Assembly: GCF_029392075.1 (NCBI RefSeq)
Contig: NZ_CP113929.1
Coordinates: 1,426,001 to 1,490,000, forward strand
Length of the DNA: 64,000 bases
Reading direction: 5' to 3'
Source: Bifidobacterium sp. ESL0704
Lineage (GTDB): Bacteria; Actinomycetota; Actinomycetes; Actinomycetales; Bifidobacteriaceae
Part shown: positions 5,011 through 54,757 of the stretch, piece by piece
Layout: each line of letters starts with the position of its first letter
Numbering within the stretch: position 1 is the stretch's first letter
The notes under the pieces: model-generated
Databases searched by the model: none
Told to the model about the DNA's origin: nothing
Seen by the model: only the letters and a program-made list of their open reading frames with translations
Translations under genes and position numbers: made by a program

Positions 5011-5132
5011 TTCCGCCATAAACGAACCGCCGACGAACACCAAACGGCCTGTTTATGGCGGATTTTTTATATCGCGCCATCAATGGACCGCTGACGGGCG
5101 CTGAGCGGCCTGTTTATGGCAGGTTCCGCTTA
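5011..5132. repeat. Two tandem 61-bp inverted-repeat units (family A)
   Basis: Two units are offset by exactly 61 bp: left-arm CGCCAT at 5014 and 5075, right-arm ATGGCG/ATGGCA at 5055 and 5116. The units are clearly alike along most of their length (CCGCYGACG..., CGGCCTGTTTATGGC). The same family recurs near 54.5-54.7 kb. Confidence 0.8.
5012..5068 (+). terminator. Hairpin plus T-run after ABC-F gene
   Basis: The 12-base arm TCCGCCATAAAC (5012-5023) pairs perfectly with 5051-5062 and is followed by TTTTTT, a classical intrinsic terminator about 20 bp after the ABC-F stop codon. It is also the first unit of a tandem inverted-repeat array. Confidence 0.75.
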
Positions 5133-5200
5133 TCGGCAACCCCATGTGGCCGCGCTGGGGTAACATCGAGCTAGATATCGGCGGACATAGGAGGTCGGCA

Positions 5201-7186
5201 ATGGACGAGGTAACGATGACGGAGCTGATGCGTAAATCGATGCTGCGGCGGCAGGCCTACAGCGTCGAGACGGTTCGCGGCATGGAACGTCCGCTGCTCG
5301 ATCGGGGCGTTCCGCTGATGCGCATGGCCGCCTCGGCCGCGGCCAGGGTTACCGCCGAACTGCTTGACGAGCGTGACATCGATATCGACGGGGCGAAAGT
5401 CGTGCTGCTGGCCGGCGCAGGCGATAACGGCGGCGACGGGCTGTTCGCTTCCGCACAGCTGGCTCGGGCAGGTGCCCAGGTCACGGCAATCGCGGTCGGC
5501 AAATCGCTGCATCTGCAAGGCCTGCTGGCCTTCACCCGCAGCGGCGGAAGGCTGTTGATCATCAATCCAGAAGCGGACATTCCAGGCGTTTCCAACGGTT
5601 TCGGCGCAGGCGAGGCCGGTGAACGGTTGCAAGCGGCGATTGAATTGACGCAGCAAGCCGATGTCGTGCTTGACGCCATGACCGGTATCGGCGTGCACGG
5701 CGCCCTTCGCGGGCCTGCCGCAACGATGGCGAATATCCTCCACCCCACCAACGAGGATGGGACAGAGCCGGAAAAGCCGCCGTTTGTAACCAACACCGAG
5801 CAGGAACAGAAGCCGCTTGTGGTAGCCATCGATACACCCTCCGGAATCGGCGTCGATGACGGAACCCTGCCCGGCAGCTATATTCCCGCCGACATCACCG
5901 TCATGTTCGGGGCCATGAAGCCTTGCGCGATGCTGCCTCCTGCTGCTTTCGCCTGCGGGCGCATCGTTCTGGTCGATTTCGGCTTCGACATCACGCGCGC
6001 CTATCCCGTGGTCTCTTCAATCGACGGCACGGCCGGCAACATGATACGGCTGCCAAAACCAACCGATTCCAAATATTCGCGCGGCGTGGTCGGTCTGATT
6101 ACCGGATCGGCGAAATACCCTGGTGCAGCCGTCCTGAGTTCCGGCGCGGCCGTCCGTTCCAATATCGGCATGGTGCGTTATCTGGGGCCGGTCAACGCGT
6201 CCGATATGGTGCTGCGCAATGCGCCGGAAATCGTTATCGGCAAAGGACGCGTCGAGGCTTGGGCCGTCGGTTCCGGAGTTCCTACCGCGCAAGCCGTGAA
6301 CGACGCCGGCAACGAGAATGCCGGCAGACACAGCGTACATGGACCCGATAGCCAGCGAGAGGCGATTGGCGCGTTGCTCAAACATTATGCATGGCCGGAT
6401 GCGCAAGCCTGCAAAACCACGGATGAGACGGAGATTCCGGTCCGTGATCTGGATCAAGAAAAAATATCGTACAAGTCCACACGTACCGGAATCGTATGGG
6501 GCAGCACCGATCCAGGCATCGATTACGAGCGTGAGCCTTGGACCATGCCGCCGATCTGCGTCGACGCGGGCGCGCTCGACCTGTTGCCGGAACGCGTGCC
6601 CCCGCATGTCGTGATCACCCCGCATGCCGCCGAACTGGCCGCATTGCTGCGTCTGCGCGGCGAGGACGTGGACACCGCATCCGTTACCGCACAACCCTGG
6701 CATTGGGCCAAACGGGCTCACAAGCTGACCGGCGCTACCGTGCTGCTCAAAGGTGCGGTGACCATCGTGGTCGGCGACGCCAATGTGGAAGGGTTGCCGG
6801 CCGGCACCGAAGCAGGATCCGAAAACGCCGATGGCACGCGCAAAATGACCACGACCTACATCTCCGGCAGCGGGCCGGCATGGCTGGCAACCGCCGGGGC
6901 CGGTGACGTCTTGGCCGGCATCATGGCGGGCATGCTCGCCCAGCAAGGCGAGGAAGAGCTGCAACACGATCCAAGCCTCGACGTCATGACCGCCGCCAGC
7001 GCAAGCTACATCCACGGTTATGCCGCAAGCCTCGCCTCCGAATCCGACCAGCACGGCTGGGAGCCGCCTGAAATCTTCGACGAAGACAGCACCATCTCGC
7101 CGGACGGCAAGCCCGGGCACCCGATTGTGGCGACCGATGTCATCGCGGCACTGCCCCAGACGTTCGAGGAGTTGATGCAGAACTAA
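5201..7186 (+). CDS. nnr: Bifunctional NAD(P)HX epimerase / NAD(P)HX dehydratase
   Basis: Repairs hydrated NAD(P)H: the N-terminal YjeF_N domain epimerises S/R-NAD(P)HX and the C-terminal ribokinase-like domain dehydrates it using ADP/ATP. The epimerase domain shows AGAGDNGGDGLFAS-type glycine motifs and AIDTPSGIGVDDG. The dehydratase domain shows VITPHAAELAALL and the catalytic GAGDVLAGIMAGML motif near the C-terminus. The start at 5201 has an AGGAGG core ending about eight bases upstream; an in-frame upstream start would add 19 residues without a ribosome site. The 661-residue length exceeds the usual ~500, because of hydrophilic inserts between the dehydratase motifs. Confidence 0.93.
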   Translation: MDEVTMTELMRKSMLRRQAYSVETVRGMERPLLDRGVPLMRMAASAAARVTAELLDERDIDIDGAKVVLLAGAGDNGGDGLFASAQLARAGAQVTAIAVGKSLHLQGLLAFTRSGGRLLIINPEADIPGVSNGFGAGEAGERLQAAIELTQQADVVLDAMTGIGVHGALRGPAATMANILHPTNEDGTEPEKPPFVTNTEQEQKPLVVAIDTPSGIGVDDGTLPGSYIPADITVMFGAMKPCAMLPPAAFACGRIVLVDFGFDITRAYPVVSSIDGTAGNMIRLPKPTDSKYSRGVVGLITGSAKYPGAAVLSSGAAVRSNIGMVRYLGPVNASDMVLRNAPEIVIGKGRVEAWAVGSGVPTAQAVNDAGNENAGRHSVHGPDSQREAIGALLKHYAWPDAQACKTTDETEIPVRDLDQEKISYKSTRTGIVWGSTDPGIDYEREPWTMPPICVDAGALDLLPERVPPHVVITPHAAELAALLRLRGEDVDTASVTAQPWHWAKRAHKLTGATVLLKGAVTIVVGDANVEGLPAGTEAGSENADGTRKMTTTYISGSGPAWLATAGAGDVLAGIMAGMLAQQGEEELQHDPSLDVMTAASASYIHGYAASLASESDQHGWEPPEIFDEDSTISPDGKPGHPIVATDVIAALPQTFEELMQN

Positions 7187-7274
7187 GTATCGACGTCGCC
7201 GATCGGCCGATTTCGATAGTCGTGGCACGATAGTCGAAATGAGTGATAGGCATATCAAAAAAGAAAGAGGAACG

Positions 7275-7934
7275 ATGTCCAAGCCGCAAAACAATAATGT
7301 CGACAAACGCGATACCGAAATCCGCGATGTCATGTTCGATTTCTGCGGAGTATTGCTCGAACTGAACTATCGCCCGTGCTTCGAGGGGCATTTCCCTTCA
7401 GCCATCATCGACCAGGTTTGCTCGGACAGGGACGTCTACGGGTTCTTCGCCGCCGAAGCGCGTATGGATGCCGGCGAAGACTTCGCGGTGGTCATCAAGG
7501 ACGTCGAAAAGGAATACGGCGACAAGGCGGCTACGATGTTCCGCTATTACATCGAGCATTACGACGATGCCCTGCCTAAGACGATCGACGGCATGGAAAC
7601 GCTGCTGACGGATCTGCGCAAGGCCGGCTATGGCGTATGGGGTCTGACGAACTGGTCGGCCGAGACATTCCATTTCGCGTTCGAAAAATTCCCGCAGCTC
7701 GAACGGCTGCTGCAGGGCACGGTGGTTTCGGGCGTCGAAAAGATGCACAAGCCGAACGCCGACATCTTCGATCTTGCCTTGAGCCGCTTCGGACTTGATG
7801 CGGGCCGAACGGTGTTCTTCGACGATACGCAGGCCAATGTGGATGGCGCGAAAACCGTTGGCATCAAGGGAATCCATTTCAGCGATGCGGTCCAAGCCCG
7901 AACAGCGCTGCAAAGTCTGGGTGTGCGTATCTGA
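7275..7934 (+). CDS. HAD superfamily hydrolase (YihX / epoxide-hydrolase-like subgroup)
   Basis: A 219-residue haloacid-dehalogenase-fold phosphatase, probably acting on a small phosphorylated metabolite. Motif I is MFDFCGVLLEL: the nucleophilic Asp is present, but the second Asp of DxD is replaced, as is common in the YihX-like subgroup (DxGNV/DxGGV). Motif II (GLTNWS), a lysine in EKMHKPN and motif IV (VFFDDTQANVDGA) are all visible. The start at 7275 is preferred because AAAGAGG lies five bases upstream; an in-frame ATG at 7239 lacks such a site. It is 88 bp downstream of nnr on the same strand and may be co-transcribed. Confidence 0.85.
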   Translation: MSKPQNNNVDKRDTEIRDVMFDFCGVLLELNYRPCFEGHFPSAIIDQVCSDRDVYGFFAAEARMDAGEDFAVVIKDVEKEYGDKAATMFRYYIEHYDDALPKTIDGMETLLTDLRKAGYGVWGLTNWSAETFHFAFEKFPQLERLLQGTVVSGVEKMHKPNADIFDLALSRFGLDAGRTVFFDDTQANVDGAKTVGIKGIHFSDAVQARTALQSLGVRI

Positions 7935-8142
7935 ACCCTGTTATGATATACGCATATGCGGGCATCCGCGCCAGACATTTACAACGAACGAACACGAAAT
8001 CAAATCTTCACGTACGCGGATGCCTGGTCAGTTTCGCCGTCTTTTCAACGATTCAAGAATATTCAGACGGAGTTATTATCGCTTTACACCAGTTCCAATA
8101 TCAACTATCGTTATAAGTTAATCTCGTCGATACACGCGTTGT

Positions 8143-8148
8143 TATAAA
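8143..8148 (+). promoter_or_regulatory. -10 box (TATAAA) of a probably leaderless LysR mRNA
   Basis: TATAAA ends eight bases before the LysR ATG, with no Shine-Dalgarno sequence between them. Transcription would therefore begin at or within a base or two of the start codon. Leaderless mRNAs are common in actinobacteria; this case is inferred from spacing only. Confidence 0.4.
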
Positions 8149-8156
8149 CTTCTGCT

Positions 8157-9086
8157 ATGACACTGCTGCAGCTGAAATATATCGTCAAGATCGTGGAATG
8201 CGGCTCGATGAACGAGGCCTCCCACGAGCTGTATGTCTCCCAGCCCGCGCTGAGCTCGTCGGTCAAGGAACTCGAGCACGAGATGGGCATCGAAATCTTC
8301 ACCCGCTCCTCGCAGGGTATCGCGCTGACCGTCGACGGTGCGGAATTCCTCACCTACGCGCGTCAGGTGCTCGATCAGGCCGAGCTGATGGAGGAACGCT
8401 ACAAGCACGCCAAGCCCCGCAAGCAGCTCTGCTCGGTCTCCACGCAACACTACATGTTCGCCGTCGAGGCGTTCGTCGAGATGATCAATTCCATCGAATC
8501 CGACGAATACGAGTTCACGCTTCGCGAGACCCGCACACGCGACATCATCGATTCCGTCGCCAACATGCTTTCCGAAATCGGCATCCTCTACCTCTCCGAC
8601 TTCAACAAGGACGTCATCGGCAAGCTCCTGCGCGGCAAGCACCTCGAGTTTCACCCGCTCTTCCGTGCCGGGCTGCACGTCTTCATCTCACGCGACAACC
8701 CGCTCGCGTCCAAGAAAATCGTAACGATGGACGATCTCAAGCCGTACCCGTTCATCCAGTACGAGCAAGGCGAGGAAGGCAGTTTCTACTTCGCCGAGGA
8801 GGCGGTCTGGCCCAAGGACTCCCCCAAGCTCATCACCGTCACCGACCGCGCCACGATCCTGAACTTCATCATCGGTCTCAACGGCTACACCATCTGCACC
8901 GGCATCGACAACGGCGACCTTAACAACGAGAAAATCGTCACCGTCCCGCTCGACACCGACGAGACCATGCTGGTCGGCTGGATCACCAACGAGCGCGCCA
9001 ACCTCTCCAAGGCCGCCGAAAGCTACCTGGGCAAGCTCAAGTCCGTCATCGCCAGCCACGGCTACACGCTGATCGAATCGAACTGA
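8157..9086 (+). CDS. LysR family transcriptional regulator
   Basis: A 309-residue protein with an N-terminal winged helix-turn-helix (LQLKYIVKIVECGSMNEASHEL YVSQPALSSSVKELE, residues 4-40) and a LysR substrate-binding domain from about residue 90. It probably senses a small ligand. No divergent partner gene is adjacent: upstream is a 222-bp non-coding region with the motif GTTATAA repeated at 8110 and 8141, and downstream is a hairpin. The target is therefore unknown. Confidence 0.9.
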   Translation: MTLLQLKYIVKIVECGSMNEASHELYVSQPALSSSVKELEHEMGIEIFTRSSQGIALTVDGAEFLTYARQVLDQAELMEERYKHAKPRKQLCSVSTQHYMFAVEAFVEMINSIESDEYEFTLRETRTRDIIDSVANMLSEIGILYLSDFNKDVIGKLLRGKHLEFHPLFRAGLHVFISRDNPLASKKIVTMDDLKPYPFIQYEQGEEGSFYFAEEAVWPKDSPKLITVTDRATILNFIIGLNGYTICTGIDNGDLNNEKIVTVPLDTDETMLVGWITNERANLSKAAESYLGKLKSVIASHGYTLIESN

Positions 9087-9110
9087 GCGTTGATGGCCGG
9101 CCGTCGATTA

Positions 9111-9153
9111 TTGATTATTGGTCGTTGGTCAATACTAAAAGGCCGATAATCAA
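9111..9153. terminator. Bidirectional hairpin between LysR gene and orphan gene
   Basis: Arms TTGATTATTGG (9111-9121) and CCGATAATCAA (9143-9153) pair over 11 bases with one G-T wobble. It lies between the convergent ends of the LysR gene and the gene at 9177-9593. Flanking T/A runs suit termination on either strand. Confidence 0.6.
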
Positions 9154-9176
9154 TCCTCCGCTTTTATTCAGGAAAC

Positions 9177-9593
9177 TCAATTGAAGCGGAAATCATCGTT
9201 GATGACGATACCGAATTCGTTCTTGAGGAAATTGCGCCCCGACTCCCGATCTATGTCGTGCCCCGACCGGAAAGACTTCACGGTCACCAACAGCTGGGAG
9301 GTTTTGCCAAGCTCGCAGAACGGCGCATGGGCATCCCACCCATCGGCAGCAACCGCCATCGTAGGTTCGTAGACGTAGCCGTATCCTGCGGCGTTCGCAT
9401 AACCGTTAAAGCACAGCCCCCATGCATGGTGCCTGTCAAGCAATCGGCAATACTCATCCGCAGCCTGGCGCGAGGCATCGTCAGCTTTCACCTTACGGGC
9501 AATCGCGTCGATCTCGTCCATGGTCTTGGCGTCCTGAGCGATAGTAAGGTTGTCGTACGCCAAACTTTCCTTACGCGTCTTCGCAATGCCCAC
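9177..9593 (-). CDS. Uncharacterised protein (138 aa)
   Basis: Not recognised. It looks soluble, with no signal peptide or membrane segment; a helical charged first half (TMDEIDAIARKVKADDASRQAADEY) is followed by a Gly/Tyr-rich stretch (NGYANAAGYGYVYEPTMAVAADGWDAHAPF) and the tail RNFLKNEFGIVINDDFRFN. GTG at 9593 is chosen because a GGGGGGA purine run is six bases upstream; the same frame stays open to a GTG at 9671 with no ribosome site. It lies about 100 bp downstream of the SdpI-like gene on the same strand and could share its transcript, though a TTGACC motif in the gap may be an own promoter. Confidence 0.6.
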   Translation of the reverse strand: MGIAKTRKESLAYDNLTIAQDAKTMDEIDAIARKVKADDASRQAADEYCRLLDRHHAWGLCFNGYANAAGYGYVYEPTMAVAADGWDAHAPFCELGKTSQLLVTVKSFRSGHDIDRESGRNFLKNEFGIVINDDFRFN

Positions 9594-9694
9594 GGTGCAA
9601 TCCCCCCAAACGTTTCTAGGATTTAAAAGCCTTACATAGCAGTACTTTAGGTCAAGGGTCTGCCAACACACTCAACGGACATCGTCAGACGATA

Positions 9695-10540
9695 TTATTG
9701 AATCGGGCCGCCGACGTTTCCGTATTTCTTGCCGGCATAGACGCCGTAGATGGAAATCACGACGACAATGACCAACGTTACAACGAGGATGGCGTAGAGG
9801 TTCACCACGTCGTAGATGTGCAGAGCCAAGCCGAAAACCATCAGGATCACGCCTCCGAGAATGAACGCGAACCCGCCGAAACGCTGGCAACGACGCCACG
9901 ATTCACGGCTTTTGAAGGCTCCCGGCACGCGGATGCCGCTCCAGCGGTTCATCCGGGTGTTCGGCATGACGTTGCCGACGACGATGAACACCAGACCGGT
10001 CACGACGTTCAGGATCACTTCCAGCGGTATCGTGGCTCCGCCTTGTCCTTTGCCGAACGCGTCGGCGATGAACCACACATTGAGGACGTTGAGCACCACG
10101 AACATGCAGCATCCGCCGATGATCCATACGCGCACCGTCGTCTTAGTGCTCATACCGGCATTCGACTGCTTGCGAGCGGAACGCTCAACGGGGATTTCGC
10201 AGACCAGCCAGACCAAGCAGACAAGCAACGTGAACAACGGAAAGAAGAGCCACTCACCCTTGCTGCCCCAACTGTCGAGCTCGCCGTACGCATTGTAGTG
10301 CATAGGAACACGATCGGGCATATACGGCAATGCCAGCAAGTAGACAATCAGCGGCAACAGACCGAGGATCACCATTGCGATGTTCCAGTTTTTCGCACCG
10401 GCGATCACGGCTTTCCAGTCTCGTCCTTCTCCACCATCGGATCCGCCATTCGCGCGTCCTTGGACTTCTGGAACATCAGCCTTCATCGGTTTCGTTGCCG
10501 GCTTCTTTTCTTCTTCTTCAATATCGTCGTTCATCATCAT
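9695..10540 (-). CDS. SdpI/DUF1648-like integral membrane protein
   Basis: A 281-residue membrane protein with a charged N-terminal 50 residues and about six hydrophobic segments. The DUF1648-type block (YMPDRVPMHYNAYGELDSWGSKGEW) and the SdpI-type block (NVMPNTRMNRWSGIRVPGAFKSRESW) are both recognisable. In Bacillus subtilis SdpI gives immunity to the SdpC toxin and sequesters the repressor SdpR at the membrane. Here its ATG overlaps the stop of an SdpR-like regulator by four bases, matching the sdpRI arrangement. No SdpABC toxin genes are visible. Whether it senses a foreign toxin or membrane stress is unknown. Confidence 0.85.
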   Translation of the reverse strand: MMMNDDIEEEEKKPATKPMKADVPEVQGRANGGSDGGEGRDWKAVIAGAKNWNIAMVILGLLPLIVYLLALPYMPDRVPMHYNAYGELDSWGSKGEWLFFPLFTLLVCLVWLVCEIPVERSARKQSNAGMSTKTTVRVWIIGGCCMFVVLNVLNVWFIADAFGKGQGGATIPLEVILNVVTGLVFIVVGNVMPNTRMNRWSGIRVPGAFKSRESWRRCQRFGGFAFILGGVILMVFGLALHIYDVVNLYAILVVTLVIVVVISIYGVYAGKKYGNVGGPIQ

Positions 10541-10923: not shown

Positions 10924-10955
10924 GGTGCCTCCTTCTGACACATTCAACATTGTTA

Positions 10956-10977
10956 TATTTCAAATAATATTGAAATA
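10956..10977. promoter_or_regulatory. Palindromic operator O1 of the SdpR-like regulator
   Basis: TATTTCAA - 6 bp - TTGAAATA, a perfect 8-bp inverted repeat, 33 bp upstream of the regulator start. It matches the second palindrome 50 bp away in arms and spacer length. Confidence 0.7.
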
Positions 10978-11004
10978 TAAAAACAGAATACTCCATTTCC
11001 CCAT

Positions 11005-11028
11005 TTATTTCAAATTATCTTGAAATAA
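11005..11028. promoter_or_regulatory. Palindromic operator O2 of the SdpR-like regulator
   Basis: TTATTTCAA - 6 bp - TTGAAATAA, a perfect 9-bp inverted repeat with the same core as O1. The two centres are 50 bp apart, a distance compatible with cooperative binding across the promoter. Confidence 0.7.
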
Positions 11029-11107
11029 ACCTTTGCGAGTTTCAAAACAGACCTAAGAACCTCAAACTCCCCAATGTTGACAACGAACGATCATGGATGT
11101 ACAGTTT

Positions 11108-11134: not shown

Positions 11135-11188
11135 TAATGAAATTATCGAGATTAGGTTATTTCACCGATATTGCAATGGAGGAACATG

Positions 11189-18950: not shown

Positions 18951-19148
18951 TGTTACCCGGAAACCGGCAGGGAACCGAAGTCATGGGTTCGCGGCCAAAA
19001 CCTAGCCTTAAGCCGCAAACCCATGATGAGGCGCCTCTTTATCATGGGTTTGTAGCCCGCGACCGTCACAATGCCGCAAACCCATGACGGGGAACTTCTT
19101 TATCAAGGGTTCGGGTCACAAAATCCCCGTGAAGCCGCAAACCCATGA
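18951..19148. repeat. Tandem 61-bp inverted-repeat array (family B) between pyrD and pyrE
   Basis: GCCGCAAACCCATGA occurs at 19012, 19073 and 19134, exactly 61 bp apart. The reverse-complement arm TCATGGGTTTG/TCATGGGTT follows inside the units (19042; 18981), with a one-base variant TCAAGGGTT at 19103. Each unit can fold into a hairpin. A degenerate unit occupies 18951-19011. The rest of the 325-bp gap (18894-18950 and 19149-19218) shows nothing recognisable. Confidence 0.8.
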
Positions 19149-19218
19149 CGAAGACGCTCGGCCGGCGGCACGGCGCCTCCAGCGGACCCGATATGACGGT
19201 CCAGAGCACACCGCTCCC

Positions 19219-20208: not shown

Positions 20209-20213
20209 CGCGC

Positions 20214-22296: not shown

Positions 22297-23802
22297 TCAA
22301 CCTTTCGTACCGACTGTCAACCTGCTGAACACCAACTTTGAGCCGATGATTGTGGCCATTGGCCTGCCCGTAAGCTTCCACCCATCGAACGGGGTGTTGC
22401 GTCCTTTGGAATGGAACCGGGCCGAATCGACAGTCCATTGATGATGGGTATCGATCAAGGTCAGATCGACGTTTTCGGGGTGTTCGACTTTGCTCAAATC
22501 CAGTATCCGTTTCGTCGCGCACTTCGCGGAGGTATTGAGCAACATTGCCACATCCGTAGGCTTGTGTCCCATCAGCCGTTCCGGGGCCAGAGCCATAAGT
22601 TCAATCAGCCGCTCATCGCTGATGGCACCGCTTCCCACCAGCACCTTGCGGCAGACGCCGTACGCGCATTCCAATCCGATGATGCCGTTCGGCGCATCGA
22701 CCAGCCCGGCAGCCTTTTCCTCGGCCGTATGCGGGGCGTGATCGGTGGCGATCATATCGACGGTTCCGTCGGCGATCGCGGCGACCGTGGCACGGCGGTC
22801 CGCTTCACTTCTCAGCGGCGGGTTCATCTTGGCCATCGTGCCATACTTCAATATGTCCTCGTCACACAACGCCAGATAATGCGGTGCCGTCTCGCAGGTG
22901 ATCGGCAAGCCTTCGGCTTTGGCCTTGCGAACGGCATCGAATGCTCCGGCCGTCGAGACATGCTGAAAATGGATGTGGGCGCCGGTACGCCGGGCCGCTT
23001 CGATGTCACGGTTGACGATCGTCAGTTCGGTTTGCGCAGGAATACCGGCGATACCGAGTTTTCTGCTGACCGTCCCCTCGTTGATGGCACCCGTATCGTG
23101 ATGCTCGCAATGCTCGAGCACCGGCAACCCGGTCGCCTTCGCATCGGCGAGCACTGAGTCAAGAATCTCGTCGGTAATCGCCGAACCATCGTCGGTGATC
23201 GCACGTAGCGGATGCTGCAAAACGGCATTGTCCGGGCTTTGAGACGTATCCGATATACCGTTATCATGTATACCGTTATCATGGTTTGTCGATTGTCCGG
23301 CAGTATCCATGAATCTGATGTAATCGTCGGGTCGTGTCGGTAGTTTCCCCGTCCGACCGAGTGACGCGCAGACGGAAAGGTCATAGCGAACCGGCAGTTG
23401 CACATCGTGCAGTTGTTCATAGCGTTGCAGATAGTCGAGCGTGTTGACGACGCCGACTTCCTTGAGCTCTTCGCCGCCGTCGACAGCATCCTGGACATTG
23501 ATGTCACGCCCATCGGCAGCCGGCAGCGTATTCGGCATAATCAGCACGCGCGTATAGCCGCCGGCCGCTGCAGCCTCACAGCCGGAGACCATTGTCTCCT
23601 TGGTCGTTTGCCCCGGATCGCGGAAATGCACATGCGGGTCGGCGAGCCCTGGTGCGACGATCAACGACGAGCCGTCGATATCGCCGGATACGACGGCACC
23701 CGCTTCAGTAAGCAACCGTTGGGCGTCGCTTTCCGGTATAACGAGGTCGATGCGTTCGCCGGTGTCCCACACCGCGATGTCATGAATGGTGAGCATGTGC
23801 AT
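22297..23802 (-). CDS. pyrC: Dihydroorotase
   Basis: Zinc amidohydrolase closing N-carbamoyl-aspartate to dihydroorotate. The metal-binding DPHVHFRDPGQTTKET and TDHAPHT motifs and the central HCEHHD and HFQHVS histidines are all present. At 501 residues it exceeds the typical ~430-450, with a low-complexity insert around residue 170 that contains HDNGIHDNGI, encoded by a perfect 15-bp tandem duplication at 23254-23283. The first ATG (23802) has only a weak AAGAGAA site. Confidence 0.94.
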   Translation of the reverse strand: MHMLTIHDIAVWDTGERIDLVIPESDAQRLLTEAGAVVSGDIDGSSLIVAPGLADPHVHFRDPGQTTKETMVSGCEAAAAGGYTRVLIMPNTLPAADGRDINVQDAVDGGEELKEVGVVNTLDYLQRYEQLHDVQLPVRYDLSVCASLGRTGKLPTRPDDYIRFMDTAGQSTNHDNGIHDNGISDTSQSPDNAVLQHPLRAITDDGSAITDEILDSVLADAKATGLPVLEHCEHHDTGAINEGTVSRKLGIAGIPAQTELTIVNRDIEAARRTGAHIHFQHVSTAGAFDAVRKAKAEGLPITCETAPHYLALCDEDILKYGTMAKMNPPLRSEADRRATVAAIADGTVDMIATDHAPHTAEEKAAGLVDAPNGIIGLECAYGVCRKVLVGSGAISDERLIELMALAPERLMGHKPTDVAMLLNTSAKCATKRILDLSKVEHPENVDLTLIDTHHQWTVDSARFHSKGRNTPFDGWKLTGRPMATIIGSKLVFSRLTVGTKG

Positions 23803-44091: not shown

Positions 44092-44092
44092 T

Positions 44093-48600: not shown

Positions 48601-50217
48601 GACGATCTCCTCACGCTCCCAATCCAGCGGCGGATTGGTGACCTGCGCGAATTTCTGGGTGAAATAGTCGAACAGCATGCGGCTGTGGTTGGAAAGCACC
48701 GGCTGAGGAGTGTCGTTGCCCATCGCGCCGATGGGCTCCTTGCCGGTGTTGGCCATCGGGGCCAGCAGAATCTTGATGTCCTCCTGCGTATAGCCGAAGG
48801 CGCGCTGGCGGCGAACCACGGAAACGTTGGAATGACGGACATGCTCACGCGCCGGCAGATCGCGCAGACGCACGGCATTGCCTTCGATCCACTTTCGATA
48901 GGGATGTTGGCCTGCCAGCTGGTGTTTGATCTCGCTGTCCTCGATCATGCGCCCTTCGAGCGTATCGATGAGGAACATCCTGCCGGGCTCGAGCCTGCCT
49001 TTGGCGACGATACGCTCCGGCTCGGTTTCGGGCAGCACTCCGGCTTCACTGGCCAATACGACATACCCGTCGTCGGTGATCTGCCAGCGGCCAGGACGGA
49101 AGCCGTTGCGGTCAAGCTGCGCGCCGACCAACCTTCCATCGGTGAAGACGATGTTGGCCGGCCCGTCCCACGGCTCGATGAGGCTGTTGTTGTACTCATA
49201 GAACGCACGCACATCGGGGTCGAGCGTCTTGTCCTTCTCCCAAGCGGGAGGCAGCATCATCAACACCGCGTGCGGCAGGCTGCGGCCCGCGAGATGCAAC
49301 AGCTCGAGGCATTCGTCGAACGTGCCGGAATCCGAATAGCCGGGGGTGGTCACCGGCAGCAGCGGCTTGAACTCCCCCAGCAATTCGCTGCTGAATTTGC
49401 CCTCGCGCGCCGAAAGCCAGTTGCGATTGCCCTGAATGGTGTTGATCTCACCGTTGTGTGCGATCATGCGGAACGGCTGCGCCAACGGCCAGCTCGGGAA
49501 GGTGTTGGTGGAGAAACGGGAATGGACGATTGCGATCCTCGTCTTCATCTTCGGCGAAAGCAGATCCGAGAAGAAACCGGTAAGCTGCATGGTGGTGAGC
49601 ATGCCCTTATAGGTGATGGTTCGCGCTGAAAGCGAGGCGAAGTAGACGCCGGCCTCGTGCTCGACGCGTTTGCGCACGCGGAAGGCCTTGCGCTCGAGGT
49701 CTATGTCTTTAAGGGGTGGCTGGCCTTGCGCCGAGGCCATGACGAGCATCTCGAAAGCCGGCATGCTGGCGAGCGCCTGCAAACCGAGCCCGTCGGGATT
49801 GGTAGGCACCGTCCGCCATGCCAGGACTTCCAGTCCCTCTTCTGCCACGATATCGGCGATTTGACGCTTTTGCTCCGCCGCATCCGCCAGACCGCGATCG
49901 AGGAAGGCGATGCCGGCCGCGTAGGATCCGGCTTCTGGCAGCGGGCAATCCGAGGGTGTTTGAATGACCGAGCGCATGAATTCATCCGGCATCGCCATGA
50001 GGATTCCGGCACCATCACCGGTGTTCTCTTCGGCACCCACTGCCCCGCGATGGTTGAGATTGACGAGCACTTCGATCGCGTCGTCGACGATTCTGCGTTC
50101 CGGTTGCTTGTTGAGGGTGGTGACCATGCCGACACCGCAGGCGTCATGCTCTCCCGCCGGGTCATACATACCGACCGCTGGATGAACCGTCAAATCAAGT
50201 GGGCTCTTACGTGTCAC
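45625..50217 (-). CDS. gltB: Glutamate synthase (NADPH) large subunit
   Basis: Uses glutamine amide and 2-oxoglutarate to make two glutamates. 1530 residues: a class II amidotransferase domain whose nucleophile is in EHDACGVGMV, followed by the central and FMN-binding synthase domains (GEGGESDDRIEDP; GSDGGTGAAPL), the [3Fe-4S] cysteines CNLNTCPQGIATQ, and the C-terminal GXGXG beta-helix (GGRVIVRP...GGTVVVLGPTGRNFGAGFSGG). The start is GTG at 50217 with GAGGTGAT upstream. The catalytic Cys is about 25 residues from the start, implying a short propeptide. Confidence 0.96.
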   Translation of the reverse strand: MTRKSPLDLTVHPAVGMYDPAGEHDACGVGMVTTLNKQPERRIVDDAIEVLVNLNHRGAVGAEENTGDGAGILMAMPDEFMRSVIQTPSDCPLPEAGSYAAGIAFLDRGLADAAEQKRQIADIVAEEGLEVLAWRTVPTNPDGLGLQALASMPAFEMLVMASAQGQPPLKDIDLERKAFRVRKRVEHEAGVYFASLSARTITYKGMLTTMQLTGFFSDLLSPKMKTRIAIVHSRFSTNTFPSWPLAQPFRMIAHNGEINTIQGNRNWLSAREGKFSSELLGEFKPLLPVTTPGYSDSGTFDECLELLHLAGRSLPHAVLMMLPPAWEKDKTLDPDVRAFYEYNNSLIEPWDGPANIVFTDGRLVGAQLDRNGFRPGRWQITDDGYVVLASEAGVLPETEPERIVAKGRLEPGRMFLIDTLEGRMIEDSEIKHQLAGQHPYRKWIEGNAVRLRDLPAREHVRHSNVSVVRRQRAFGYTQEDIKILLAPMANTGKEPIGAMGNDTPQPVLSNHSRMLFDYFTQKFAQVTNPPLDWEREEIVTSLASAIGPEPNLLEDVQLAAKKIVIDNPVIDSDEMAQLKRLDRAKVLGGYYKPFVIHGLYQVAGGGQALEARLEEIFDEIDQAIADGKNFLVLSDRDSNHTWGPIPSLLLTSAVQHHLLRTHTRTQVSMAVEAGDVREIHHVALLIAYGAACVNPYLAFESVEDLARSGFLKVDAKTGVENLRQALSTGVLKIMSKMGVSTIMSYRGAQLFEAVGLNQDVIDKYFTGTTSRVGGIGLDQIAEEVATRHRVAYPNQWTATPHRRLRVGGQYKWRRTGEDHLNDPESVFLLQQATQRGDYGLFKKYSQHVNDTSNRIMTLRGLMKFAEGRKPIPLDEVEPESEIVKRFSTGAMSYGSISQEAHETLAIAMNSIGARSNSGEGGESDDRIEDPMRSSRIKQIASARFGVTSDYLVHATDLQIKLAQGAKPGEGGHLPGAKVPPWIAKVRHATPGVELISPPPHHDIYSIEDLKQLIYDAKMANPKARIHVKLVSEFGVGTVAAGVAKCHADVVLISGSDGGTGAAPLNAIKHAGTPWEIGLAETQQTLILNGLRSRIVVQCDGELKTGRDVVIAALLGAEEFGFATTALMAEGCVMMRACNLNTCPQGIATQDPELRARYTGKPEYVVNFFMFIAREVRELLAQLGFHSLEEAVGHVECLDQNEAIKRWKSDGVDLSNVLAQAGPTPGTILHQTIAQNHELDKALDNKLIELVKPALDDREPVRLDLPIRNVNRTVGTMVGYEITKRYGATGLPDDTIDMTLRGSGGQSIGAFIPRGETLRIYGEVNDYAAKGLSGGRVIVRPVDGALHFDPHTNVIAGNVTGFGATSGEMYVAGRAGERFAVRNGGATFVVEGVGDHGCEYMTGGTVVVLGPTGRNFGAGFSGGHTYVLDLDMNKVNPGALKSGSLLFETLDDAQAQHIHQLVKRHAEETGSAFAQDLLADWEHNKTRFTHIVPKQFVAMSAAMDEARADNVDFNAPGAWEHVYEHVMEGVD

Positions 50218-50763
50218 CACAATCACCTCTAACTTCCGTGGAACCGTACCTGCGTTGCAAGTGCTTTCACAGAGTAGCGGCAAGTCATGTCAGAAATGTA
50301 TCGTTGTCCAATTTCAGACGAATTCTTCCATATTGTGGACACCCATCCAGCAACGTGAATCGTTTATGGTGATTATCTCTGCATATCGCTCTCGGCAACG
50401 ACAGCAATCACATTTCTACGGCATTTTTTGTGATTATCTCAGCACACTCACCGATGTTGCAGAGGAAATCACACAAAAGCGGTCACACATGTTGTTTACG
50501 CATACGACAAGACGTTGCTTCACGTTGAAAAGCAGAAAACATGACTCCTCATTCTGCTTTTGCACGCAGCCAGATACCATACAGCGTTGAAAAGCAGATT
50601 TTCAGCATGGAAACACTGCTTTTCAACGCAAACAATCAGGTAGCCGCGTCAAAAAGCAATATTTTGGTGCCATAAATCTGCTTTTCAACGCATTCGCCAT
50701 CCCTCGCTTTACAAGAACCGCGGGTAATCACATTGATTTAGCGGTGTTATAAAAGACTCAGTT
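50218..50763. other. 546-bp intergenic region upstream of gltB
   Basis: Contains the gltB promoter zone (50218-50500, AT-rich, no operator firmly recognised), the three-unit 62-bp inverted-repeat array at 50523-50690, and the 73 bp 3' of hemW. A rightward open frame at 50255-50590 is present but has no ribosome site and unusual composition. Confidence 0.5.
50523..50690. repeat. Tandem 62-bp inverted-repeat array (family C)
   Basis: CGTTGAAAAGCAG at 50523 and 50585, with variant CGTCAAAAAGCAA at 50647. Its complement CTGCTTTTCAACG lies at 50616 and 50678, with variant CTGCTTTTGCACG at 50554. Each arm is 13 bp with 18 bp between, so the motif alternates in orientation every 31 bp. The array is 3' of hemW. 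Confidence 0.85.
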
Positions 50764-52131
50764 TCACCATCCGCAGATGTCGAGCACCTCGGCGATCAGT
50801 GTATCGTTGAGCAACCGTCCCTTGCCGGTGGGAACGATGCGATTATCGTCACAGACCTCGATCAGCCCGTCTCGTTCGATATCGTTGAGCCGGCTGCGGT
50901 CGACAGTATGCCCGGACGCCTGGTCGATACGCGAAATATCAAGCCCCTCATGCAGACGCAGACCGAGCATCACCGTCTCCTCGAGGTTCTCCTCGTGGGT
51001 AATGGCCTCGCTGCCAGCCCACGGCACGCTACCCGCATGCATCGCTTCTGCCCATTTGCGCGGATGCGCGATGTCCCACGCGCGGACGCCGAACTGGCTG
51101 GCATCCGATTGACCGTCGCTTGCTGTGCCGAACGCTTCATCTTCACCAGTCTGCTCGGCTTTCGAGAGGTCAACAACCTTGATGCGGGCATTAGTCGCAT
51201 TGCCGTCAGCCGCGGCAACAACCTTTCTGAATCCATCTTCGTCGATATCGCGAACGCTGGAAACCACATGTTCCTGCCACGCGCCAACGTTCGACGTGCG
51301 ATAGTGCGAATGCGCTCCGGGGCCGATACCAGTCCAATCGACGTTGCGCCAGTAGCCCAGGTTATGCCGGCTCTCATAGCCCGGCCGCGCCCAGTTCGAA
51401 ATCTCGTACCATTGCAGGCCGGCCTGTTGGAAAAGGTCATCGGCGATCTCGTACTTGGCGGCCTCGTCGTCGTCATCGGGCTTGGCGATGGTGCCGGCCT
51501 TGATCTGCCGCCCCATCTTGGTGGTCGGCTCAACGGTCAACGCGTACGCCGAGATGTGGTTAACGCCAAGTTCGATGGCCGTCTCGACCGATGTGCGCCA
51601 ATCGGCTATGCTCTCTCCGGGAGCGCCATAGATGAGGTCGACGCTGGAACGCAGGCCGACCCTGTTCGCCGCCTTCACCCCGGCAGTGACGTTGGCCGGC
51701 GTGTGGGTGCGGTCAAGCGTTTTCAAAACGTGGGGGACAGCCGATTGCATCCCGAACGAGATACGGGTGAATCCCGCAGCCGCCAAGGTCTCCAAGTACC
51801 GCTCATCGACAGTGTCGGGATTGGCTTCGGTGGTGATTTCCGCGCCGTCCTCGATGCCCCACGTTTCACGCACCGCACGCAGCATCCGACCAAGGTCATC
51901 CGCCGGCAGCAACGTCGGCGTCCCTCCCCCGAAGAACACCGTCGATGCCGCCGGTTCGTCGATGCCGTGCCGCTGCTGCCAGACGTGCACCAACCGCATT
52001 TCATCAATGACAAGGTTCGCGTAATTGCCACGCGACGCGCCACCACCCATATCGACGGCCGTATACGTGTTGAAATCGCAGTACCCGCACCGCCGATAGC
52101 AAAACGGCACATGAATATACACTTCGAACAT
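50764..52131 (-). CDS. hemW: Radical SAM heme chaperone HemW-like (oxygen-independent coproporphyrinogen oxidase family)
   Basis: 455 residues beginning FEVYIHVPFCYRRCGYCDFNTY, with the CxxxCxxC [4Fe-4S] radical SAM motif. FFGGGTPTLLPADDL, EITTEANPDTVDE and RISFGMQSAVPHVLKTLDRTH follow, and the HemN-like C-terminal region (EETVMLGLRLHEGLD). The cysteine preceding CxxxC typical of true HemN is absent, favouring HemW. Inserts such as AADGNATNARIKVVDLSKAEQTGEDEAFG lengthen it. There is no Shine-Dalgarno site; a TAAACT box eight bases before the ATG suggests a leaderless mRNA. Confidence 0.88.
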   Translation of the reverse strand: MFEVYIHVPFCYRRCGYCDFNTYTAVDMGGGASRGNYANLVIDEMRLVHVWQQRHGIDEPAASTVFFGGGTPTLLPADDLGRMLRAVRETWGIEDGAEITTEANPDTVDERYLETLAAAGFTRISFGMQSAVPHVLKTLDRTHTPANVTAGVKAANRVGLRSSVDLIYGAPGESIADWRTSVETAIELGVNHISAYALTVEPTTKMGRQIKAGTIAKPDDDDEAAKYEIADDLFQQAGLQWYEISNWARPGYESRHNLGYWRNVDWTGIGPGAHSHYRTSNVGAWQEHVVSSVRDIDEDGFRKVVAAADGNATNARIKVVDLSKAEQTGEDEAFGTASDGQSDASQFGVRAWDIAHPRKWAEAMHAGSVPWAGSEAITHEENLEETVMLGLRLHEGLDISRIDQASGHTVDRSRLNDIERDGLIEVCDDNRIVPTGKGRLLNDTLIAEVLDICGW

Positions 52132-52139
52132 AACGTTTC

Positions 52140-52145
52140 AGTTTA
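52140..52145 (-). promoter_or_regulatory. -10 box (TAAACT) of a probably leaderless hemW mRNA
   Basis: Read leftward, TAAACT ends eight bases before the hemW ATG, the same spacing as the TATAAA box before the LysR gene. No ribosome-binding purine run lies between. Confidence 0.35.
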
Positions 52146-52348
52146 GCGCGAGGCACACATTTTTATGACAATTCCAAAGCGACATTAGTGTCACAAAAGA
52201 TACGATTTTGTAACCAATCACACGTAGCCTCTCATCACTACTTGATTGCGCACCGGTTAAAAATTAAATCATGAGTTCCATCAACTTACATTGAATTCGT
52301 TCGAAACACGAAATATCATCATGGATAAAGACCTCAAAGGAGACTAAA

Positions 52349-53209
52349 ATGTCTGAAGACGATATGGCTGACCGTCAACAACCAGTGTATTGGAATTATT
52401 TATCGCAAACAGGCCAATTTTACTCTTGCGATTATTTCTGCACGCCCTATAGAGATCCCGACACATATAATCCAAAACTTTACAAAGACATATTACAAGT
52501 TTATAACCATAGAAGAAAGACGATGAAATTGGACTTGCCAAAGTTATCATTGTCAGAAACGAATAAACCATATTTAAAAGACGACAACAAAAAACGTTAC
52601 AGTACGGATGGGATCGGGCCTTCTCGTCATTATGCGGAACAAGCAAGTCTTACCTATTGCGACGTCGCAAAGTTTTTAACATGGTCAAGAACCATTGGCG
52701 GCCACATGCTATGGCCCCGCCATCCTGGTTCAATTAATACCCGAAGAGGGAATATTGCTCTCAGAGATAGGATAGATTTAGCTCTTTACGAAATTAAAGA
52801 ATTTATGAATCTGTATCTTCATAATAATCTTAAAAAAGATGATAAAGGTCGCACCATCGTATTTAGCACTCATCTAAGATGTATTATTCAGAACGAAGAT
52901 GAGGACTGGCTTAAAAGATTCCAAAATCCAAAATCATCACAATCATGGTTCCAAAACTTTATTGATTTTTGGAAACTAGAAGACTTTGTAACTAAAAATT
53001 ATGAGGTTATGTCACTCGAAAAATGCGATATAGAAGAAATTCGAAAACGGACATGCTGTCAAGAACATCTAGTAAACCCTGATTCTTACGGAAAAGGTAA
53101 TAGAATAGGCAACCGAACAAACTTTCTTCACTATTCAGAAAATCTGAAAATCATAATTACTAAACGAACTCAAAAACTCAACGCAATTCTCAACGACAAG
53201 TACGAATAA
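52349..53209 (+). CDS. AT-rich orphan gene, uncharacterised protein (286 aa)
   Basis: Not assignable to a family. Starts with ATG at 52349, seven bases after AAAGGAGAC. The protein is soluble, rich in Asn, Lys, Tyr and Trp. It contains LTWSRTIGGHMLWPRHPGSINTRRGNIALRDRIDLALYEIKEFM and ENLKIIITKRTQKLNAIL. Base composition and codon use (AAA, AAT, ATT, TTA) differ sharply from all neighbours, a strong sign of horizontal acquisition. It stands alone between hemW and a long inverted repeat. The gap 52146-52348 is AT-rich and probably holds its promoter. Confidence 0.8.
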   Translation: MSEDDMADRQQPVYWNYLSQTGQFYSCDYFCTPYRDPDTYNPKLYKDILQVYNHRRKTMKLDLPKLSLSETNKPYLKDDNKKRYSTDGIGPSRHYAEQASLTYCDVAKFLTWSRTIGGHMLWPRHPGSINTRRGNIALRDRIDLALYEIKEFMNLYLHNNLKKDDKGRTIVFSTHLRCIIQNEDEDWLKRFQNPKSSQSWFQNFIDFWKLEDFVTKNYEVMSLEKCDIEEIRKRTCCQEHLVNPDSYGKGNRIGNRTNFLHYSENLKIIITKRTQKLNAILNDKYE

Positions 53210-53228
53210 AACATCAAAGAACAATCGA

Positions 53229-53287
53229 TCAATCGTGCTGGTCTTTACCGTCAACCTATGAGAAAAAATAAAGACCAGCACGATTGA
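53229..53287. repeat. 19-bp perfect inverted repeat after the AT-rich gene
   Basis: TCAATCGTGCTGGTCTTTA (53229-53247) pairs perfectly with 53269-53287, with a 21-bp loop containing a run of A. It lies 19 bp after the stop codon. It can serve as a terminator, but no U-run follows on the plus strand; the loop A-run would give U's for leftward transcripts only before the second arm. Confidence 0.7.
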
Positions 53288-53351
53288 ATCCATATCTTAA
53301 TCTTAAACACCACTTAAAAGCAAACGATTTCCAACGCTAACCTCAAACTCG

Positions 53352-53683
53352 TCATTCCAACTCGAAAGCGTACATCAGCACCAAATCGATGACTACGATG
53401 ATGATATAAATAATTCCCGCGCGCTTGCCGAAATCGAAAAGAAACCAGAGGCGCCAACAGCATAAACGCCAACCTCCAATGCTAGCTTACCTTGGCCCTG
53501 GGCCACATGTGGCGACCCCGGGGCACCATATCTGGCCCAGACCAGCACGAGTACTATGCCAATGATGATCCATAACGCTTTCTGCCAGACACGAGGAGCC
53601 AAAAAGTCGCCACCCAAGACCAAACCGAACACTGTACCTATCTCAAGGCAAAAGCGAACCGCCGCAACTACCATTGGCGCCAT
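53352..53683 (-). pseudogene. YrdB/DUF2568-like membrane protein, frameshifted
   Basis: The first frame runs from ATG 53683 (GGGAGG six bases upstream) to a stop at 53393: MAPMVVAAVRFCLEIGTVFGLV...VWARYGAPGSPHVAQGQGKLALEVGVYAVGA, a DUF2568-type protein. After VYAVGA the frame becomes polar. In another frame the sequence continues LWFLFDFGKRAGIIYIIIVVIDLVLMYAFELE and stops at 53352, exactly the hydrophobic C-terminus expected. One missing base near 53446-53454 explains it; this is either a real mutation or a sequencing error. Confidence 0.75.
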
Positions 53684-53754
53684 TCCCAACCTCCCTTTAT
53701 TTTCAGTACTTTCCTAACATGGCCGCGCTGCCTTCACCCTGATACGAGGAACAA

Positions 53755-54441
53755 TCATACCCACGCAAAATCTGTGTCAGAGCCAGCACCTATTTCAAAA
53801 TGGTATTTGGCGATACCCAGATCGGTGCGGGTGCAGGGGCCTAAGCCGGCTTTGGCTTCGACAGAGCGACCATCAGGCTGCAGGGTGAACGTGAATTTTT
53901 GCTGGTTCAGCGATGTCGGCGCGAGAAGCGCGGCCTGAACGCCATTGCGGAACCATGTCGGCGTATCCATGCCTTCCGGCACACGCGCGACCTGCTCATA
54001 CCGTTTCGACTTGTGCTGATGGCCATGGTTGACGCCATAACCGAAAACAATGGCGAATCTCGGGCGTTCCCCGCCCTCCAACGCCACATGTTTACGCAGA
54101 TGCCTGCCAAATTGCCGGACCCAGCCGGTGTCCAATCCGAGCTGAGTGGCGCGAAGCAAGACGTGAGCGCCATAATAGCCACAGCGCTCTTCCCATCCGT
54201 TAGTACCATCAGAAACAATCGCGACAAGGTTGCGCGCGTTCTTGTAGATGCCGTAATCGGTCAGAAAACCCTCAAATGCGGCAGGATCATTGAGCTTAAG
54301 CTGCATACTCAAGTTGCCTTCGCGATTGCACCGCTCAATCGTCCGCTGCAGTTCATCGGCAACATCCTGCGCAACCGGCTTGTCGGTGTAATGCCGAACC
54401 ACATGCCGCGCATGAATCGCCTCATCCAACCTCATCGTCAT
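53755..54441 (-). CDS. Nitroreductase-family flavoprotein
   Basis: 228 residues of the putative nitroreductase fold: LDEAIHARHVVRHYTDKPV at the N-terminus (FMN phosphate region), CGYYGAHVLLRATQLGLDTGWV, RPRFAIVFGYG and a C-terminal substrate-side region (APTSLNQQKFTFTL...LGIAKYHFEIGA). Most like the TM1586-type nitroreductases rather than the classical NfsB group. ATG 54441 has AAGGGCGGA upstream. Physiological substrate unknown. Confidence 0.85.
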   Translation of the reverse strand: MTMRLDEAIHARHVVRHYTDKPVAQDVADELQRTIERCNREGNLSMQLKLNDPAAFEGFLTDYGIYKNARNLVAIVSDGTNGWEERCGYYGAHVLLRATQLGLDTGWVRQFGRHLRKHVALEGGERPRFAIVFGYGVNHGHQHKSKRYEQVARVPEGMDTPTWFRNGVQAALLAPTSLNQQKFTFTLQPDGRSVEAKAGLGPCTRTDLGIAKYHFEIGAGSDTDFAWV

Positions 54442-54757
54442 GGATTCCGCCCTTCTCAAACCACTGCACACCGACCACCATCATATGCCCCAAGAGCGTA
54501 CTCCAGGTTGCGCCATAAATGAACCTCCGACAACCGCTGAGCGGCTCGAATAGGGAGGAATCAGAATAGTTTCGACATGAGTAGGTCGCTGGTAACTATC
54601 AGGAGAGTTGAATTATGGCTGAATCATGGGTTGCGCCATAAATGAGCCACTGACAACCGCTGAACGGCACAAAATGATTGAACCAAAAAATCCGCCATAA
54701 GTAAGACGCTTGACGGCCGTCAATGGCTTATTTATGGCGGAAACCGGACAGAACCTT
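54442..54757. repeat. Tandem ~61-bp inverted-repeat array (family A) 3' of lepA
   Basis: GCGCCATAAATGA occurs at 54510 and 54633, a degenerate unit (TTTCGACATGAG) at 54570, and CCGCCATAAGTAAG at 54692. Matching right arms are ATTATGGC near 54612 and TTTATGGCGG at 54731-54740. The last hairpin lies 18 bp after the lepA stop and can act as its terminator. Units closely match those at 5.0 kb (CGCTGACAACCGCTGAGCGG-type centres). No other feature was seen in this 316-bp gap. Confidence 0.75.

What the first reader, a model, noticed from the sequence alone, without database searches (positions are those of the whole stretch)
5011..54757. At least four intergenic sites share one architecture: 3'-UTR arrays of ~61-62-bp inverted-repeat units
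Sites at 5.0 kb (2 units), 18.95-19.15 kb (3-4 units), 50.5 kb (3 units) and 54.5-54.7 kb (4 units, some degenerate) all have a period near 61-62 bp and hairpin-forming arms. All lie 3' of a gene (abcF, pyrD, hemW, lepA). Arm sequences fall into three families (CGCCATAAA, GCAAACCCATGA, CGTTGAAAAGCAG). The common period despite different sequences suggests a shared generating mechanism or a length-constrained function. I know of no named bifidobacterial element with this description, but that is not a literature search.
Basis: partly seen in the sequence, partly recalled or inferred. Interest (0 to 1): 0.78.

Follow-up and report, generated by a model that had tools for sequence, protein, structure and literature searches.

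The report
Helix-phased palindrome arrays in bifidobacteria
Between many genes of this Bifidobacterium lie short arrays of mirror-image DNA repeats whose sequences differ from family to family but whose spacing and A/T pattern follow the turns of the double helix, which suggests DNA built to be bent or wrapped by a protein.

Summary
Sampled stretches of this genome and of relatives show 11 arm sets (three of them kin) with one geometry. Arms mostly alternate in orientation about every 31 bp. Periods cluster at 51-52, 61-62 and 71-72 bp (5, 6 and 7 helical turns). A/T content oscillates at ~10.4 bp, locked to the dyad in the same phase (296 of 297 units, two sets overlapping; control hairpins 37 of 68). 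Arrays recur at orthologous sites between species, change copy number by whole units, and inter-arm segments have flipped in place at two loci. Sampled stretches of sister species (ESL0682, bohemicum, bombi) show none. Y1_Tnp (RAYT) and SbcD were not found in 14 genomes. Best reading: BIME-like, helically phased DNA for bending or wrapping, DNA gyrase being the lead candidate; the binder is inferred, not shown. Rivals: RNA hairpins, relics of mobile palindromes, operator arrays. Ten full-text searches listed no paper that I recognised as describing them. The '3'-UTR' label is only weakly supported.

The parts
5012..5062 (.). site 1 unit 1, family A dyad (TCCGCCATAAAC...GTTTATGGCGGA), followed by ATTTTTT
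5075..5124 (.). site 1 unit 2, family A, degenerate; period 61
18980..19149 (.). site 2, family B array (GCCGCAAACCCATGA arms alternating every 30-31 bp; period 61) between pyrD 3' end and pyrE start
50522..50567 (.). site 3 unit 1, family C 46-bp dyad
50584..50629 (.). site 3 unit 2, family C, arms matching the consensus exactly
50646..50691 (.). site 3 unit 3, family C; similar units and spacer at the orthologous place in Bifidobacterium sp. ESL0763 (L050)
54511..54550 (.). site 4, family A half unit
54634..54673 (.). site 4, family A half unit 123 bp further on
54691..54741 (.). site 4, complete family A dyad, next to the lepA 3' end; family A units also on the lepA side in ESL0763 (L050 8518, 8579)

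Best explanation
The sites belong to a genome-wide class of interspersed DNA elements defined by geometry more than by sequence (19 loci of families A-F in 464 kb; roughly 70-90 per genome by extrapolation from the sample outside the window). Each unit is a ~46-bp dyad with a G/C-rich centre and A/T tracts at about +-5, +-15.5 and +-26 bp. Units repeat every 5, 6 (mostly) or 7 helical turns, so arms recur about every three turns on one face of the helix (spacing and composition are shown; 'one face' follows from them). Inferred: the arrays are anisotropically bendable platforms, usually of at least two units, around which a protein wraps or assembles. DNA gyrase is the lead candidate: its known motif has phased G/C arms of 47 bp, its C-terminal domains wrap 35-52 bp, and it cuts the comparable BIME-2 palindrome arrays of E. 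coli. Positions between genes would fit a role in taking up positive supercoils or in organising the chromosome. Family-specific arm sequences suggest a second, sequence-specific factor or common descent within each family (open). The palindromes probably also form hairpins or cruciforms at times, since inter-arm segments have flipped in place.
For: Dyad-locked A/T phase: 296 of 297 units in 11 arm sets have the same sign at 10.4 bp (sets C and Cg overlap), against 37 of 68 other hairpins of the same length. Spectrum of 27 hand-listed arrays: mean power 7.6 at 10.4 bp against about 1.4-1.5 at the neighbouring harmonics of 62 bp and 1.7-1.8 in 400 random intergenic windows; 19 of 27 individually p<=0.01 against shuffles. 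Periods: C 62 in 60 of 72 neighbouring pairs; E 62, I 62, D 61 with two of 52, J 61, B 61, A 61, F mostly 71-73 with two of 61, H 51. Family I keeps only the dyad centre conserved, yet has the same period and phase. Spacer sequence is unconserved (0.00-0.12 bits in mid-spacer) while its length is fixed at 16. Of 53 intergenic family-C arrays, 49 have two or more units by the search criterion. Orthologous identity over 17 hand-chosen unit pairs: arms 94.5%, loops 85.3%, spacers/flanks 78.6%. Flips at two loci. Gyrase motif: symmetrical, 130 bp, 47-bp arms with 10.75-bp GC periodicity; BIME-2 enriched in cleavage sites (PMC6379681, passages).
Against: No binder was identified. Gyrase is near-universal, so it cannot by itself explain why sampled stretches of sister species show no such arrays (0 of 85, 0 of 61 and 0 of 26 intergenic regions) or why arms are sequence-conserved. 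Geometry differs from the gyrase motif: 46-16-46 here against 47-36-47. Eight of 27 arrays are not phased at p<=0.01 on their own (A1, B1, B2, F2, J1, M1, N1, Q1), including window sites 1 (p=0.11) and 2 (p=0.053); site 4 was not examined there. Several arm sets (C, Cg, L, and perhaps D, F, J) look distantly alike, so the shared phase could be inherited rather than reached independently. Arm conservation is inflated by ascertainment, because loci were found by a <=3-mismatch pattern. Within-unit pairing above expectation at several arm positions and an excess of G-U over A-C mismatches on the sense strand, mostly explained by composition, leave room for an RNA role.
Confidence: 0.5

Rival explanations
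1. RNA-level elements: transcribed tandem hairpins that end or protect transcripts, with the DNA pattern secondary.
For: Family-C arrays lie nearer to gene 3' ends than starts. Sense-strand G-U mismatches exceed A-C in codirectional regions (145 vs 86) and not in convergent ones (51 vs 50). Codirectional family-C loops are more often T-rich than A-rich on the sense strand (29 vs 16). Loop edges avoid pairing (position 17: 15 observed vs 42.5 expected in 97 units).
Against: The sense-strand composition printed predicts a G-U:A-C ratio of about 1.29, and control inverted repeats of 60-66 bp show 30 vs 19; divergent regions show 23 vs 7. No terminator-like site at site 3. Loops of 14-18 nt without a following U-tract (site 1 unit 1 is an exception). 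10.4-bp A/T phasing and 10-bp steps in period are not expected of RNA. Loop polarity may be inherited rather than selected.
Confidence: 0.2
2. REPIN/MITE-like mobile palindromes: arrays are debris of small elements once moved by a transposase, with no present function; geometry is that of the transposase-DNA complex.
For: High copy, dispersed, lineage-specific families (C in 6 of 101 genomes; I in 5 of 101; E in 1 of 101). Related subfamilies (C, Cg).
Against: Y1_Tnp (RAYT) not found in 14 of 14 genomes. Of 55 arm matches at <=2 mismatches in the own genome, 51 lie in or beside arrays; the 4 isolated ones were not followed up. Genes flanking 13 arrays looked metabolic or housekeeping by eye, none like a transposase. 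Spacer sequence not shared between copies. Arms better conserved than loops and spacers between orthologues, though ascertainment inflates this.
Confidence: 0.18
3. Operator arrays for paralogous sequence-specific regulators or nucleoid proteins that bind cooperatively at three-turn spacing (Lrp-like geometry), one protein per arm family.
For: 14-bp conserved arms, 1.1-2 bits at 12 of 14 positions in family C, alternating every ~31 bp.
Against: The Lrp/AsnC ligand domain PF01037 was not detected in G000, G029, G050 or G055, which carry arrays. Flanking genes form no evident regulon. Only 5 of 53 family-C arrays lie in divergent regions.
Confidence: 0.12

Closest known systems
BIME-2 / REP (palindromic unit) arrays of enterobacteria, gyrase-bound
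   Same: High-copy intergenic palindromes, alternating orientation, regular spacing, mostly outside divergent regions (PMC3733652: abstract, two sections and passages; PMC2817692: passages; PMC6379681: passages)
   Different: Several dissimilar sequence families with one geometry in one genome; no RAYT found; dyad unit ~46 bp with 14-18-bp loops; array phased at 10.4 bp; periods in steps of one helical turn
Strong gyrase sites (Mu SGS) / E. coli 130-bp gyrase motif
   Same: Dyad symmetry and ~10.5-bp phased G/C variation over ~46-47-bp arms (PMC6379681 and PMC12393610, passages)
   Different: Centre is 16 bp here, 36 bp there; tandem arrays; conserved arm sequences; gyrase binding untested
REPINs and GTAG/CGTC-tagged REPs
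   Same: Inverted doublets, dispersed, lineage-specific
   Different: No RAYT found; no GTAG/CGTC tag in the family-C consensus; spacers not shared between copies
Lrp/AsnC octamer-wrapped regulatory sites (geometry recalled, not from a call)
   Same: Three-turn spacing of binding sites
   Different: Protein family not detected in several array-bearing genomes; arms not internally palindromic except family I

Membership tests
BIME (bacterial interspersed mosaic element) | regularly spaced palindromic units in alternating orientation, intergenic, high copy | tested here: met
BIME (bacterial interspersed mosaic element) | built from REP sequences homologous to enterobacterial REPs | not tested
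   no alignment to enterobacterial REPs was made
REP mobilised by RAYT | RAYT (Y1_Tnp) gene in genome | tested here: not met
   0 of 14 Bifidobacterium genomes; control 5 of 14
REP mobilised by RAYT | unpaired GTAG or CGTC tag at one end | tested here: not met
   family C only: the consensus TGCGTTGAAAAGCAGA from 128 units has neither (by reading). E and B contain CGTC or GTAG inside the paired arm; the other families were not tested
E. coli gyrase motif | ~10.5-bp phased G/C over ~47-bp arms, dyad symmetric | tested here: met
   (19 of 27 arrays individually significant); motif from PMC6379681
E. coli gyrase motif | 36-bp centre between arms | tested here: not met
   16-bp spacer in family C
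E. coli gyrase motif | gyrase binding or cleavage | not testable with these tools
   needs Topo-Seq or EMSA; the published weight matrix lies in supplements that could not be read
Intrinsic terminator | G/C-rich stem, short loop, U-tract | tested here: not met
   scan run at site 3 only: 0 found; site 1 unit 1 is followed by ATTTTTT but has a long loop
CRISPR array | near-identical direct repeats with unique spacers of repeat-like length | tested here: not met
   inverted arms, divergent copies, 16-bp spacers
Known Rfam RNA | match over gathering score | tested here: not met
   0 matches in the window
Lrp/AsnC-bound sites | Lrp/AsnC protein in the genome | tested here: not met
   PF01037 in 5 of 14 genomes, not in G000, G029, G050, G055

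The most novel reading that the evidence does not exclude
A class of bacterial chromosomal elements defined by geometry rather than sequence: some nine or more arm families, renewed from lineage to lineage, all held to dyad units phased with the DNA helix at 5, 6 or 7 turns, acting as genetically encoded DNA-wrapping stations (nucleosome-like, for gyrase or an unknown nucleoid protein) at many tens of intergenic sites per genome, with individual segments able to flip in place.
Probability: 0.3. Interest if true: 0.87.

Novelty: new variant of a known kind. Interest (0 to 1): 0.74.

Why it matters
Why palindrome arrays such as REP/BIME litter bacterial intergenic DNA is an old question. Here dissimilar sequences share one helix-phased geometry, which separates geometry from sequence and makes the wrapping idea directly testable: change a spacer by 5 or 10 bp and see whether binding is lost and regained. 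It would also show a place where supercoiling or chromosome folding is written into an actinobacterial genome, in a lineage where SbcD, a subunit of the usual hairpin nuclease, was not detected.

Tried and rejected
RAYT/REPIN system: Y1_Tnp not found in 14 of 14 genomes. Lrp/AsnC as common binder: PF01037 found in 5 of 14 genomes, not in G000, G029, G050 or G055. Known RNA family: none at gathering threshold in the window. Ordinary terminators: none at site 3, the only site scanned. CRISPR-like array: rejected on anatomy. RNA selection by G-U versus A-C mismatches: inconclusive once strand composition and control repeats are allowed for. Hairpin covariation in family C: total pairing is above shuffled pairs (1575 vs 1477 in 128 units; 1227 vs 1207 in the 97 closest), largely at subfamily-defining positions; positions 5 and 6 mismatch often, and position 6 pairs no better than chance. 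Loop-edge anti-pairing may be inherited polarity. Regulon idea: flanking genes of 13 arrays, read by eye from their first 60 residues, look metabolic or housekeeping with no common theme (not annotated by HMM). gltB tree: the four array-lacking species B-bin1, commune, ESL0682 and ESL0784 group together (96/99), the array-bearing ones are unresolved; the rows L055 and L058 sat on branches over 4 changes per column, so I disregard them. TRF reported no 61-62-bp array. An earlier count said 20 of 27 arrays significant; recounting one search gives 19 of 27 at p<=0.01.
Full report
WHAT WAS CHECKED. The window is bases 1,426,001-1,490,000 of a 2,415,815-bp single-contig genome. Its HemW protein is 76-83% identical (best segment) to those of Bifidobacterium sp. 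ESL0682, B-bin1, ESL0763, ESL0784, B. bohemicum and B. commune, the nearest of the 59 loci returned (records of the window's own genome may be left out there). I recall some of these as bee-associated. The flanking genes encode an ABC-F protein and a YjeF-like protein (site 1), PyrD and PyrE (site 2), HemW and glutamate synthase large subunit (site 3), and LepA with a weakly matched oxidoreductase-like protein (site 4).

MORE THAN CHANCE. Twenty 20-kb stretches spread over the genome were taken (one, L006, was placed on a known family-A hit) and genes called with a simple codon-score caller of my own, so gene borders are approximate. In 83 kb of intergenic DNA (window plus stretches), direct repeats numbered 11 at lag 61 and 14 at lag 62, against none at those lags in five dinucleotide shuffles. 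In arbitrary stretches of five genomes that carry family C (G055, G029, G025, G034, G050), lags 61 and 62 give 20 counts in 143 intergenic regions (19 distinct regions by the list), where other two-lag bins average 1.15. In the 20 G000 stretches it is 11 counts in 198 regions (other bins average 4.18). It is 0 in 85 regions of ESL0682, 0 in 61 of bohemicum and bombi, 0 in 26 of three further relatives, 2 in 23 of B. subtile and B. tibiigranuli, 1 in 97 of other Bifidobacterium stretches and 1 in 152 of other Actinobacteria.

FAMILIES. Family C (GCGTTGAAAAGCAG N18 CTGCTTTTCAACGC, up to 3 mismatches) occurs 25 times in this genome, 33 in G034 (ESL0763: contig lengths agree, and L142 equals L050 over 10,201 bases), 17 in G055, 5 in G029 and 2 each in G025 and G050. 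It is absent in the other 95 of 101 genomes, and the reversed control pattern is 0 in all. Family E was found only here (6 places; 1 of 101 genomes). Family I (CTTGGCGCGCCAAG repeated at 62 bp) occurs 42, 45 and 34 times in G055, G096 and G050, twice in G029, once in G094, and not in the other 96 including this one. Further families came from the window, the sample and relatives; C, Cg and L resemble each other, so the 11 arm sets are about nine families. One search lists 21 loci in 464 kb: two of family H and 19 of families A-F (three of these are single dyads); 15 of the 19 lie outside the window, hence roughly 70-90 per genome by extrapolation.

ANATOMY OF FAMILY C. 128 units were collected (up to 8 mismatches). 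Arms carry 1.1-2 bits except at positions 5 and 6 (0.6-0.8); the 16-bp spacers carry almost none. Of 72 neighbouring unit pairs, 60 are exactly 62 bp apart, 5 are 61, 3 are 63 and 4 are longer. Of 53 intergenic arrays, 33 have two units, 11 three, 3 four, 2 five and 4 one; two further single hits, at 7 mismatches, lay inside a called gene and are probably chance. Three of the four singles have a degenerate neighbour unit, and the fourth lies beside a family-D array.

SAME GEOMETRY, DIFFERENT SEQUENCE. Same-strand arm spacings up to 110 bp are: E 62 (20) and 63 (1); D 61 (28), 52 (2) and 104 (1); B 61 (9); A 61 (5) and 59 (1); J 61 (13) and 60 (1); I 62 (10), 63 (1) and 26 (1); L 61-63 (7); F 71-73 (12), 61 (2), 58, 86 and 21 (1 each); H 51 (16). 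The short motif used for M gave scattered spacings. The periods thus cluster at 51-52, 61-62 and 71-72, steps of one helical turn, and F and D show two of them within one family.

HELICAL PHASING. Centred on the dyad, A/T content of family units broadly peaks at about 5, 15.5 and 25 bp, with G/C near the centre, at 8-11 and at 18-22; a single A/T position at 10 interrupts this in several sets (B, C, Cg, D, E), and small sets are noisy. One hundred unassigned single hairpins are flat, 0.33-0.65. The dyad-locked cosine coefficient at 10.4 bp is negative in 296 of 297 units of 11 arm sets (C and Cg overlap), against 37 of 68 control hairpins. Spectra of 27 hand-listed arrays peak on average at 10.2-10.4 bp (7.6), five times the neighbouring harmonics of a 62-bp repeat; 19 of 27 are individually significant at p<=0.01. 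Not so are A1 (window site 1), B1 (window site 2), B2, F2, J1, M1, N1 and Q1. Random intergenic windows show a weak 10-bp signal (1.7-1.8).

EVOLUTION. Many family-C arrays lie between the same genes in several species. The hemW-gltB array is shared with G034 and G025 and absent in ESL0682, ESL0784, B-bin1 and commune. Over 17 hand-chosen orthologous unit pairs, arms are 450 of 476 identical, loops 261 of 306, spacers and flanks 401 of 510; ascertainment by pattern inflates the arm figure, and flipped loops were left out. One extra unit plus spacer distinguishes G000 from G055 at one locus (L114/L126). At two loci segments between arms have inverted in place: two loops and the spacer between them at L109 versus L131, and one loop at L112 versus L128, while outer flanks keep their direction. 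Arm variants at L109/L131 place the breakpoints inside the arm core (read). In one search, 7 of 58 matched segment comparisons are flips: six belong to these two loci, and one weak case (0.75 versus 0.62) I do not count. This is what replication template switching at hairpins would give (inference). SbcD was not found in 14 of 14 Bifidobacterium genomes, while the control found it in 13 of 14 well-known genomes, 8 over the curated cut-off; its loss may let palindromes persist.

MECHANISM. Length and phase constraints that outlast sequence point to DNA geometry. In E. coli the gyrase motif is symmetrical, 130 bp long, with 47-bp arms of 10.75-bp G/C periodicity; gyrase C-terminal domains are thought to wrap 35-52 bp; and BIME-2 palindrome arrays are enriched in gyrase cuts (PMC6379681, passages read; PMC12393610, a preprint, passages). 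The bifidobacterial arrays share phase, arm length, dyad symmetry, alternation and intergenic position, but their centre is 16 bp instead of 36, and gyrase cannot by itself explain conserved arm sequences or absence from sister species. I therefore commit to a DNA-bending or wrapping role (0.5), with gyrase as lead candidate (about 0.3), and keep RNA hairpins, mobile relics and operator arrays as rivals.

NOVELTY. The arrays resemble BIME-2 in build but fail the RAYT test, and family C the tag test, of REPs, so I call them a new variant of a known kind. In ten full-text searches I saw no listed title or abstract start that describes them. The 2025 RepRanger survey (PMC12306157) shows 0 occurrences of Bifidobacterium in the listing, and one passage of it, a table naming other Actinomycetota, was read.

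Noticed in passing
L004 13916-14137; L006 17713-17884: Family H: direct repeats of CGTCAAAAAAGTGCACTT at 51 bp (16 spacings), one helical turn less than 61-62; mostly direct rather than inverted.
   Followed up: partly
14 Bifidobacterium genomes (G000, G025, G029, G034, G050, G055, G101-G108): No SbcD (TIGR00619) match in any of 14 genomes, although the control found it in 13 of 14 well-known genomes: the usual hairpin nuclease may be missing from these bifidobacteria.
   Followed up: partly
window 53232-53284: Single perfect inverted repeat with long arms (ATCGTGCTGGTCTTTA...TAAAGACCAGCACGAT) outside the array families.
   Followed up: no
L007 973-1187; L005 16622-16767: VNTR arrays (period 21 bp in L007; 23 bp in L005), unrelated to the dyad arrays.
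   Followed up: no
window 23254-23283: Perfect 15-bp tandem duplication TATACCGTTATCATG.
   Followed up: no
L155 10490-10680; L151 3654-3730: Further period-61/62 repeats in relatives (families M and K), not characterised.
   Followed up: no
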